This document shows, one piece after another, positions 41,922 through 44,246 of a stretch of DNA of 64,000 nt (within the stretch, counting starts at the first letter, position 1; every line of letters begins with the position of its first letter). Under the pieces are notes generated by a model. The model had not been told where the DNA came from. It worked only from the letters and a program-made list of their open reading frames with translations, and ran no database searches. The position numbers and the translations under genes are program-made. Origin of the DNA: an uncultured beta proteobacterium (lineage in GTDB: Bacteria; Pseudomonadota; Gammaproteobacteria; Burkholderiales; Rhodocyclaceae); contig CAIVQO010000077.1 in NCBI GenBank assembly GCA_903908065.1, positions 37,381-101,380 of the forward strand, written 5' to 3'.

Positions 41922-42009
41922 TTTATGTCCCGCAGGGACGGTATCCACGGACGCGCGCCGTCAATATCCTGCAAGGGGATACCGTCCCTGCGTCCCGCAG
42001 AGACATAAA
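41922..42009. repeat. Long inverted repeat with bulge
   Basis: The inner arms CGCAGGGACGGTATCC (41931-41946) and GGATACCGTCCCTGCG (41977-41992) are perfect 16-bp complements. After a 9-base bulge on the right, TTTATGTC (41922-41929) pairs with GACATAAA (42002-42009). The loop is 30 bases. The unit looks like a palindromic intergenic element placed before the phasin terminator. Confidence 0.65.
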
Positions 42010-42038
42010 AAAAGCCCGATGCTTTTGGCATCGGGCTT
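42006..42038 (-). terminator. Rho-independent terminator of the phasin gene
   Basis: An 11-bp perfect stem AAGCCCGATGC/GCATCGGGCTT with a 5-base loop. On the minus strand it is followed by a run of seven T, a textbook terminator about 50 bases after the phasin stop. Confidence 0.9.
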
Positions 42039-42086
42039 GAAACCAGCCCCATTGCGGGGCCGGAGGAGGAGACGTTACGGTGTTGC

Positions 42087-42650
42087 TTAAGCGGCCTTCT
42101 TGGCCTTCGGAGCGGCGGCGCCGGTACCGACAGCCTTGACGGTGGCGGAAGTCGCGGCAGCCACGTTGGCTTCGGCGATTTCAGCGACTTGCTTGGCAGC
42201 CTTGGTCATGCTGTCGTAGGCCGAGTTGGCGGCGGCGATCGCCGACTTGACGGCAGCGACGGCAACGTCGGAACCGGCGGGGGCGTTCTTGGCGGCCTTG
42301 TCGAGGGCGGTGGCGACGTTCTTGTTCATTTCCGAGAACTGGCTCTCGACAACCTTCGACAGCTCTTCCTGGGTCTGGGTGGCGATCTCATACACGCTGC
42401 GCGAGTAGGCAACGGCCTTCTCGACGGCGGGCTGGGCCAGCGAAGCCTGCATGGCGACGAGTTGCTGCACGTCCTTGACGGCGAGCAGGGCCTTGGCGTT
42501 GGCAACGCTGTCCTCGAGGACGGCGCGGGCGGTGTTCAGGTTCAGGGCGGCAAGGCGCTCGGCGCTGGCGAAGGCGGTGTTGGCGATGGTCAGCAGGGTC
42601 TCGACGTTGGCTTTGTTGGCGCTGGCGAATTGTTCGGCGGCTACGTTCAT
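42087..42650 (-). CDS. phaP: Phasin, PHA granule-associated protein
   Basis: A 187-residue, highly helical, Ala-rich protein (MNVAAEQFASANKANVETLLTIANTAFASAERLAALNLN), typical of the betaproteobacterial phasin family that coats polyhydroxyalkanoate granules. The C-terminal AAAPKAKKAA tail is Ala/Lys-rich, as in many phasins. A strong TTAGGAG ribosome site precedes ATG 42650, the promoter is near consensus, and two PhaR-type sites flank it. The gene is monocistronic, with its own terminator, fitting high-level regulated expression. Confidence 0.93.
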   Translation of the reverse strand: MNVAAEQFASANKANVETLLTIANTAFASAERLAALNLNTARAVLEDSVANAKALLAVKDVQQLVAMQASLAQPAVEKAVAYSRSVYEIATQTQEELSKVVESQFSEMNKNVATALDKAAKNAPAGSDVAVAAVKSAIAAANSAYDSMTKAAKQVAEIAEANVAAATSATVKAVGTGAAAPKAKKAA

Positions 42651-42719
42651 GGTGTTTCTCCTAAGATTGGATGGATTCGAAAGTTTTTTTACTGGCCCGC
42701 CCCTATCCCTCCGGAGCGA

Positions 42720-42734
42720 TGTTGCAGTGCATCA
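42720..42734. promoter_or_regulatory. Putative PhaR operator, downstream site
   Basis: TGTTGCAGTGCATCA, in the phasin leader just after the promoter. It resembles the TGC/GCA-rich sites bound by PhaR in front of phasin genes, and is the near-exact reverse complement of the site at 42779. Confidence 0.5.
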
Positions 42735-42742
42735 TGGTTCGT

Positions 42743-42770
42743 ATTATAGGTACGAAGAACGCCAAGTCAA
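42743..42770 (-). promoter_or_regulatory. Phasin sigma-70 promoter
   Basis: Minus strand TTGACT (42770-42765), a 16-bp spacer and a perfect TATAAT (42748-42743). It is the best sigma-70 match in the window. TTCGTA/TACGAA flanks the -10 as a small dyad. Confidence 0.8.
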
Positions 42771-42778
42771 GCACTTTT

Positions 42779-42793
42779 TGATGCATTGCAACA
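42779..42793. promoter_or_regulatory. Putative PhaR operator, upstream site
   Basis: TGATGCATTGCAACA matches the reverse complement of the downstream site at 14 of 15 positions and lies just upstream of the -35 box. The pair could hold a repressor bridge across the promoter. Confidence 0.5.
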
Positions 42794-42845
42794 AAAAAAT
42801 TTCCCTAGGGATTTAATCCATTAAAAACATTAAATTAGAAATAGC

Positions 42846-42871
42846 AAAGGGGCCCTGTCGGGCCCCTTTTT
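42846..42871 (-). terminator. Terminator of the enoyl-CoA hydratase gene
   Basis: GGGGCCC/GGGCCCC stem with a TGTC loop and A/T-rich flanks on both sides. On the minus strand it lies about 25 bases after the hydratase stop; it separates that gene from the phasin promoter. Confidence 0.75.
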
Positions 42872-42891
42872 GATGCGGTGCAGAAGGATGT

Positions 42892-43668
42892 CTAGCTATT
42901 TTTGAAGCTGGGTTTGCGCTTTTCGACGAAGGCCGCCATGCCTTCCTTCTGGTCGTCCAGGGCAAAGGCGGAATGGAAGGTCCGCCGCTCGAACAGGAGG
43001 CCTTCCTGCAAGGCTGATTCATAGGCGCGATTGACCGATTCCTTGATCATCATCACCACCGGCAGCGAGAAACCGGCAATCTGGGTGGCGGCGGCCAGGG
43101 TTTCCTCCAGCAGTTTGTCGGCCGGGATGATGCGTGCCACGAGGCCGGAGCGCTCGGCCTCGGCGGCGTCCATGAAGCGCGAGGTGAGGCACATGTCCAT
43201 CGCCTTGGCCTTGCCGATCGCGCGCGGCAGGCGCTGCGTGCCGCCGGCGCCGGGCAGCACGCCCAGCTTGATTTCGGGCTGGCCGAATTTGGCCGTGTCG
43301 GCAGCGTAAATCATGTCGCACATCATCGCCAGCTCGCAGCCGCCGCCGAGGGCGAAGCCGGCCACGGCGGCGATCAGCGGCTTGCGGCAGCGAGCGACGC
43401 GGTCCCAGTTGCGGCTGATGTAGTTGGCCTTGTAGACGTCCATGAAATTCCAGCTCGACATGGCGCCGATGTCGGCGCCGGCGGCGAAGGCCTTTTCCGA
43501 GCCGGTGATGACGATGCAGCCGATGGCTTCGTCGGCTTCGAAGCCATCGAGCGCGGCGCCGAGTTCGTCGATCAGTCGGTCGTTGAGGGCGTTCATCGCC
43601 TTGGGCCGGTTGAGGGTGATGAGGCCTACCTTGCCGCGGGTTTCGACGAGGATGTTTTCGTAATTCAC
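42892..43668 (-). CDS. Enoyl-CoA hydratase (crotonase family)
   Basis: Hydrates 2-enoyl-CoA in beta-oxidation. The 258 residues carry the oxyanion-hole motif AFAAGADI and the catalytic Glu residues in [11 protein letters not shown] and [23 protein letters not shown] 43668 is the start, 10 bases after AGGAG. It follows lptA after 29 bases, where lptB and rpoN are usually found in Betaproteobacteria. The phasin gene lies just downstream, so crotonyl-CoA/PHA metabolism may be a shared theme, but this is the S-type crotonase fold, not PhaJ. Confidence 0.94.
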
Positions 43669-43697
43669 TGCGTTGTCTCCTGAGCTGATATCCGGTC

Positions 43698-44246
43698 CTA
43701 CTTTGCCGCCGTGGTGCCGGCGTCCTTGTTGCGCGGCTGGATCACGGCGCGCACGCGCTCGCGGCTGCCGCTAGGTGCCTTGGTGCCGTTTGCGCCGCTA
43801 GTCACCACGTATTGTTCGCTGCGCGCATCGTAGGAAATGAACTGTCCGCGCACTTCATCGAGCCCGCTCTTGACCCGGGCGCGACCGAAGAATTCCGTCT
43901 TCTCGGCTTTCGCGTCGTGCTCGATGCGTTCTGCCTCGCCCTCGATGTATTCGTCGAGGCCTTCGCGCTTCTGGCGGAAATTCGGCAGGCTGCTGCCGCC
44001 ACTGGCGACGCCGCGCTGGTAGCCGTCGTCGTCCTGCTGCACCACGATGCGATCGGCGCGAATCACCAGCGTGCCCTTGGCCAGTTGCACGTTGCCTTCG
44101 AAGGTCTGCACCTTGCGCACGTCATCGACGCTGACACGGTCGGCTTCAATATTGACCGGCTTGTCGCGGTCGGCCTTTTCAGCCAGCGCGAACTGGGGGG
44201 CAAGCGCCATGCAGGCGATGCCGGCAAGTGTAAGGATAGGCTTCAT
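43698..44246 (-). CDS. lptA: LPS transport periplasmic protein LptA
   Basis: A 182-residue protein with a signal peptide ([22 protein letters not shown], cleaved near 22), then the OstA/LptA beta-jellyroll: [42 protein letters not shown]. It forms the periplasmic bridge for LPS between LptC and LptD. A short disordered tail is rich in Arg, Lys and Ala. It overlaps lptC by 4 bases. lptB is not the next gene, unlike the usual order. Confidence 0.94.

What the first reader, a model, noticed from the sequence alone, without database searches (positions are those of the whole stretch)
42720..42793. Near-consensus phasin promoter flanked by an inverted pair of TGC/GCA operators
TTGACT-N16-TATAAT lies between TGTTGCAGTGCATCA and TGATGCATTGCAACA, which are reverse complements at 14 of 15 positions and about 45 bp apart. 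PhaR is known to repress phasin genes through TGC/GCA-type sites when no granules are present. Two facing sites could allow DNA looping or bridging across a very strong promoter.
Basis: partly seen in the sequence, partly recalled or inferred. Interest (0 to 1): 0.5.

Follow-up and report, generated by a model that had tools for sequence, protein, structure and literature searches.

The report
PhaR-type operator pair flanking phasin promoter
The switch in front of a gene for a bioplastic-granule coat protein carries two near-identical docking sites for the repressor that senses the plastic, one on each side of a strong promoter; this layout is already known from Ralstonia eutropha, and here it proves to be kept almost to the base across many related bacteria.

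Summary
On the minus strand, a near-consensus promoter (TTGACT-N16-TATAAT) of a phasin gene (42650-42087, PF09361) sits exactly 8 bp from a 15-bp site on each side (42779-42793, 42720-42734). Each site is itself a palindrome (TGNTGCANTGCANCA), so the pair being "inverted" means little. The sites match the published beta-proteobacterial PhaR motif. The genome has phaR in a phaC-phaB-phaB-phaR cluster, with a matching site upstream of phaC. In 107 phasin promoters from two groups the layout O1-8-(-35)-16-(-10)-8-O2 recurs; 98 have a centre spacing of 58-60 bp. A second phasin in the same genome carries a degenerate pair at 57 bp. This is the two-site layout footprinted at R. eutropha phaP1, so it is a new member of a known kind. 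The best mechanism is steric exclusion of RNA polymerase by PhaR at O2 (start site) and O1 (just upstream of -35). Looping is not excluded, but 59 bp is 5.6 helical turns and length changes in the gaps are almost never compensated, so the spacing looks set by each site's place beside the promoter. PhaR binding itself was not tested.

The parts
42087..42650 (-). phasin gene (Phasin_2, 187 aa), the regulated gene
   Evidence: PF09361 E 1.8e-30; TIGR01841 phasin
42720..42734 (.). O2: palindromic PhaR-type operator, about +2 to +16 relative to the inferred start site
   Evidence: sequence; motif match; conserved in relatives
42735..42737 (-). inferred transcription start region (not mapped)
   Evidence: inference: 6-8 nt downstream of the -10 box
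42743..42748 (-). -10 box TATAAT
42765..42770 (-). -35 box TTGACT, 16-bp spacer to the -10 box
42779..42793 (.). O1: palindromic PhaR-type operator, centre about -50, with A/T tracts on both sides
   Evidence: sequence; motif match; conserved in relatives
42871..42885 (.). possible third, auxiliary operator (O3), 92 bp upstream of O1, between the upstream gene's stop codon and its terminator
   Evidence: recurs at a similar position in a minority of relatives
42846..42869 (-). terminator-like hairpin of the upstream enoyl-CoA hydratase gene

Best explanation
This is a [13 protein letters not shown] phasin promoter of the R. eutropha phaP1 type. [quoted passage not shown] When granules form, the polymer takes PhaR away and the promoter fires, so coat protein is made in step with granule surface. 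Shown here: the sites, the promoter geometry, their conservation, and the presence of phaR. Inferred: that this PhaR binds these sites, that it represses, and where transcription starts.
For: Phasin gene directly downstream. phaR with both PhaR domains (PF07879, PF05233) in a phaC-phaB-phaB-phaR cluster. The sites match the motif YTKNTGCRNYGCANMAR deduced for R. eutropha PhaR (PMC12849132) and the footprinted H. seropedicae PhbF motif TG[N]TGC[N]3GCAA (PMC3206438). R. eutropha PhaR protects two phaP1 regions, directly upstream of -35 and around the start site, which is the layout here. Phylogenetic footprint: in 79 relatives the core TGCRNYGCA piles up in two 10-bp bins (68 and 69 loci) within about 1.7 kb; operator columns stay conserved while most spacer and flank columns do not. 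In a second family 27 of 30 phasin genes carry the pair, with 0 hits for a reversed control pattern. The strict 59-bp pair occurred in only 2 of 369 genomes of the class, upstream of a phasin both times. A second phasin of this genome carries a pair with one mismatch in each site at 57 bp. Matching sites lie upstream of phaC, acetate-CoA ligase alpha subunit, an acetate kinase and isocitrate lyase.
Against: No binding, start-site or expression data for this organism. The motif can be matched by chance in this GC-rich genome, and several of the 19 genome hits lie inside likely coding sequence. No matching site was seen immediately upstream of phaR itself. Another regulator with the same half-site is not formally excluded.
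Confidence: 0.9

Rival explanations
1. PhaR bound at O1 and O2 is bridged (a tetramer or two touching dimers), making a small loop or wrapped complex across the promoter, as the first reader proposed and as was suggested for R. eutropha.
For: PhbF concentrations in H. seropedicae were calculated assuming a tetramer. R. eutropha PhaR binding curves are sigmoid, implying cooperativity, and phaP3 fragments with two sites shift at lower PhaR concentrations. The spacing is 58-60 bp in 98 of 107 promoters.
Against: 59 bp is 5.6 helical turns, a short stiff segment with the two sites out of phase. Spacing runs from 56 to 60 bp, and only 2 of 36 promoters that depart from 8-16-8 keep a total of 59, so total spacing does not look selected beyond each site's place beside the promoter. 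In S. meliloti either copy alone suffices for binding (PMC12542648).
Confidence: 0.15
2. O1 mainly acts by covering the DNA contacted by the polymerase alpha subunit (an UP-element-like A/T tract) while O2 does the main blocking; the two sites act independently and additively. This is a finer version of the best explanation.
For: A conserved A-tract lies between O1 and -35 (columns -9 to -5) and O1 occupies about -43 to -57. O1 is flanked by A/T on both sides, which also fits the AT-rich arms reported for S. meliloti PhaR sites.
Against: No UP-element activity was tested; the A-tract may simply be part of the PhaR site.
Confidence: 0.35
3. The sites belong to a regulator other than PhaR.
For: No binding data here.
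Against: The motif equals the one deduced and bound for PhaR in related beta-proteobacteria, phaR is present, and sites recur at polymer and acetyl-CoA genes.
Confidence: 0.04

Closest known systems
phaP1 promoter of Ralstonia eutropha H16 with PhaR (Potter et al. 2002, as described in PMC3206438 and PMC12849132)
   Same: sigma-70 promoter of a phasin gene; one PhaR site directly upstream of -35 and one around the start site; palindromic TGC-N3-GCA sites with a single central base
   Different: R. eutropha has a third predicted site inside the phaP1 gene; here no intragenic peak was seen, but a possible third site lies 92 bp upstream of O1. The R. eutropha spacing could not be measured here
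PhbF (PhaR) regulon of Herbaspirillum seropedicae (PMC3206438)
   Same: motif TG[N]TGC[N]3GCAA; represses phaP1 and its own gene
   Different: no two-site geometry for its own phaP1 came up in the passages of that paper that were read; here phaR lacks a site immediately upstream
phaP1 and phaP2 promoters of Sinorhizobium meliloti with AniA/PhaR (PMC12542648)
   Same: two palindromic PhaR sites per phasin promoter
   Different: the two sites there flank only the -35 element (18 bp apart at phaP1), instead of enclosing the whole promoter at 59 bp

Membership tests
[13 protein letters not shown] phasin promoter (R. eutropha phaP1 type) | controls a phasin gene | tested here: met
   PF09361
[13 protein letters not shown] phasin promoter (R. 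eutropha phaP1 type) | palindromic PhaR motif YTKNTGCRNYGCANMAR | tested here: met
   core TKNTGCRNYGCANMA matched without mismatch by both sites; motif from PMC12849132
[13 protein letters not shown] phasin promoter (R. eutropha phaP1 type) | one site directly upstream of -35 and one at the start site of a sigma-70 promoter | tested here: met
   the start site itself is inferred from the -10 box
[13 protein letters not shown] phasin promoter (R. eutropha phaP1 type) | phaR gene with its DNA-binding and regulatory domains in the genome | tested here: met
   PF07879 and PF05233
[13 protein letters not shown] phasin promoter (R. eutropha phaP1 type) | PhaR binds the sites and represses in the absence of polymer | not testable with these tools
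   needs footprint and reporter assays
LacI-like looping operator pair | operator spacing under selection for helical phase | tested here: inconclusive
   56-60 bp range, 5.3-5.7 turns; 2 of 36 non-standard promoters compensated, which speaks against it; relatives are not independent, so the test is weak

The most novel reading that the evidence does not exclude
The near-fixed cage (operator, 8 bp, -35, 16 bp, -10, 8 bp, operator), kept across two families and echoed in two paralogous phasin genes of one genome, is a dedicated nucleoprotein lock in which a bridged PhaR complex encloses the promoter and is opened by polymer, rather than two independent blocks.
Probability: 0.12. Interest if true: 0.4.

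Novelty: new member of a known kind. Interest (0 to 1): 0.2.

Why it matters
It turns a single footprinted example into a comparative rule: the two-site PhaR promoter is kept nearly to the base across the phasin genes sampled in two groups, and the spacing data allow a first, weak test of looping against independent blocking. The same motif points to a coherent polymer and acetyl-CoA regulon in this Rhodocyclales lineage. As regulation biology it is mostly confirmatory.

Tried and rejected
A search for the R. eutropha phaP1 oligonucleotide in 401 genomes of family f2 gave no hit, so the R. eutropha spacing could not be measured directly. A first pass over the f2 loci found no pairs in most loci because loci on the minus strand were not turned; corrected. 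Rejected: chance, absence of phaR, and 'inverted orientation' as a meaningful feature (each site is a palindrome). No solved structure related to PhaR was found (best E 0.19). No paper joining PhaR, phasin and Rhodocyclaceae was found in the library, and a search for PhaR with DNA looping gave nothing relevant.

Full report
Observation. Between them on the minus strand is TTGACT-N16-TATAAT, the only promoter-like match in 42000-43700. The downstream gene on the minus strand, 42650-42087, is a phasin (PF09361, E 1.8e-30; TIGR01841). With the published motif core TKNTGCRNYGCANMA the 64-kb window has three hits, all in this intergenic region, against 0.15 expected, and none of 100 shuffles reached three.

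One correction. Each site is itself an imperfect palindrome, TGNTGCA-N-TGCANCA, the usual shape of a site for a protein dimer. A palindrome has no direction, so 'an inverted pair' or 'facing sites' is not a feature of its own.

Geometry. The layout is O1 - 8 bp - -35 - 16 bp - -10 - 8 bp - O2. The start site, inferred at 42735-42737, puts O2 at about +2 to +16 and O1 at about -43 to -57.

Conservation. A scan of genome contigs gave 80 relatives of the phasin, mostly Rhodocyclales, the closest being Sulfuritalea-like. Without any spacing constraint, the core TGCRNYGCA falls within the 10-bp bins at -20 and +40 relative to the -35 box in 68 and 69 of 79 promoters; apart from a minor cluster near -110, no other 10-bp bin in about 1.7 kb reached 4 (one search lists the sites). 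In 66 promoters under 85% identical, the defining operator positions carry about 0.8-1.8 bits, against under 0.4 for most spacer and flank columns (the -35 and -10 columns are fixed there by how the promoters were anchored). In a second family of the same order, 27 of 30 phasin genes carry the pair, with no hit for the reversed control pattern; there the -35 box is often weak (TTGCAA) while the operators are kept. Of 107 promoters in all, 98 have a centre spacing of 58-60 bp and 71 are exactly 8-16-8. The strict 59-bp pair was found in 2 of 369 genomes of the class, this one and another whose pair also precedes a phasin gene. This genome has three phasin-like genes; the one on contig C90 has a pair with one mismatch per site, 57 bp apart, around TTGACA-N17-TATATT, and the one on C48 has none.

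Regulator. phaR is present, with the DNA-binding domain PF07879 and the PF05233 domain, at the end of a phaC-phaB-phaB-phaR cluster (phaC by TIGR01838). A matching site lies 26-40 bp upstream of the phaC start, overlapping a possible promoter. No match lies immediately upstream of phaR. Other hits of the motif in this genome lie upstream of an acetate-CoA ligase alpha subunit, an acetate kinase, isocitrate lyase, a thioesterase and an acyl-CoA ligase; others lie inside likely coding sequence and may be chance.

What is known. R. [quoted passage not shown] the authors liken the arrangement to the lac operators and suggest dimer-dimer contact (PMC12849132). H. seropedicae PhbF binds TG[N]TGC[N]3GCAA and represses phaP1 (PMC3206438). 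S. meliloti phasin promoters also have two sites, but flanking the -35 box (PMC12542648). So both the sites and the two-site layout are known; what is added here is the breadth and precision of conservation.

Mechanism. The positions fit steric exclusion: O2 covers the start site and O1 abuts the -35 box. Against it, 59 bp is 5.6 turns, the spacing ranges from 56 to 60 bp, and among 36 promoters departing from 8-16-8 only two (L010 8-17-7, L109 9-16-7) keep a total of 59, as expected if each site is held in place by the promoter and not by the other site. This is weak evidence, because relatives share changes by descent. Cooperative binding without a strict phase remains possible.

Third site. 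42871-42885 (TGATGCGGTGCAGAA) matches the motif core. A core recurs between -92 and -118 before the -35 box in 14 of 79 promoters, eight of them at -106 to -108, several times just before the terminator of the upstream gene. It may be an auxiliary operator; the case is modest and shared descent is not excluded.

Noticed in passing
42871-42885: Third PhaR-type site between the stop codon of the upstream enoyl-CoA hydratase gene and its terminator; a site recurs at a similar distance in a minority of relatives.
   Followed up: partly
L095 (genome contig C42) 1561-3015: Acetate kinase with an N-terminal cyclic nucleotide-binding domain (PF00027 + PF00871), preceded by a PhaR-type site (TTGTGCGATGCAGCA) close to its start.
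   Followed up: partly
L003 (genome contig C72) 1501-1515 and 1582-1938: Strict match to the PhaR-type site just after a TAGAAT box, upstream of a 118-aa protein with no match in Pfam or NCBIfam.
   Followed up: partly
L101 (genome contig C66) 1501-1515: PhaR-type site 72 bp upstream of isocitrate lyase, suggesting a link between polymer sensing and the glyoxylate shunt.
   Followed up: partly
L100 (genome contig C64) 1501-1515: PhaR-type site upstream of phaC that seems to lie inside the promoter spacer, a different position from the phasin pair.
   Followed up: partly
42743-42770 and relatives: The promoter spacer is 16 bp in nearly all of the 107 phasin promoters compared, where 17 bp is usual.
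   Followed up: no
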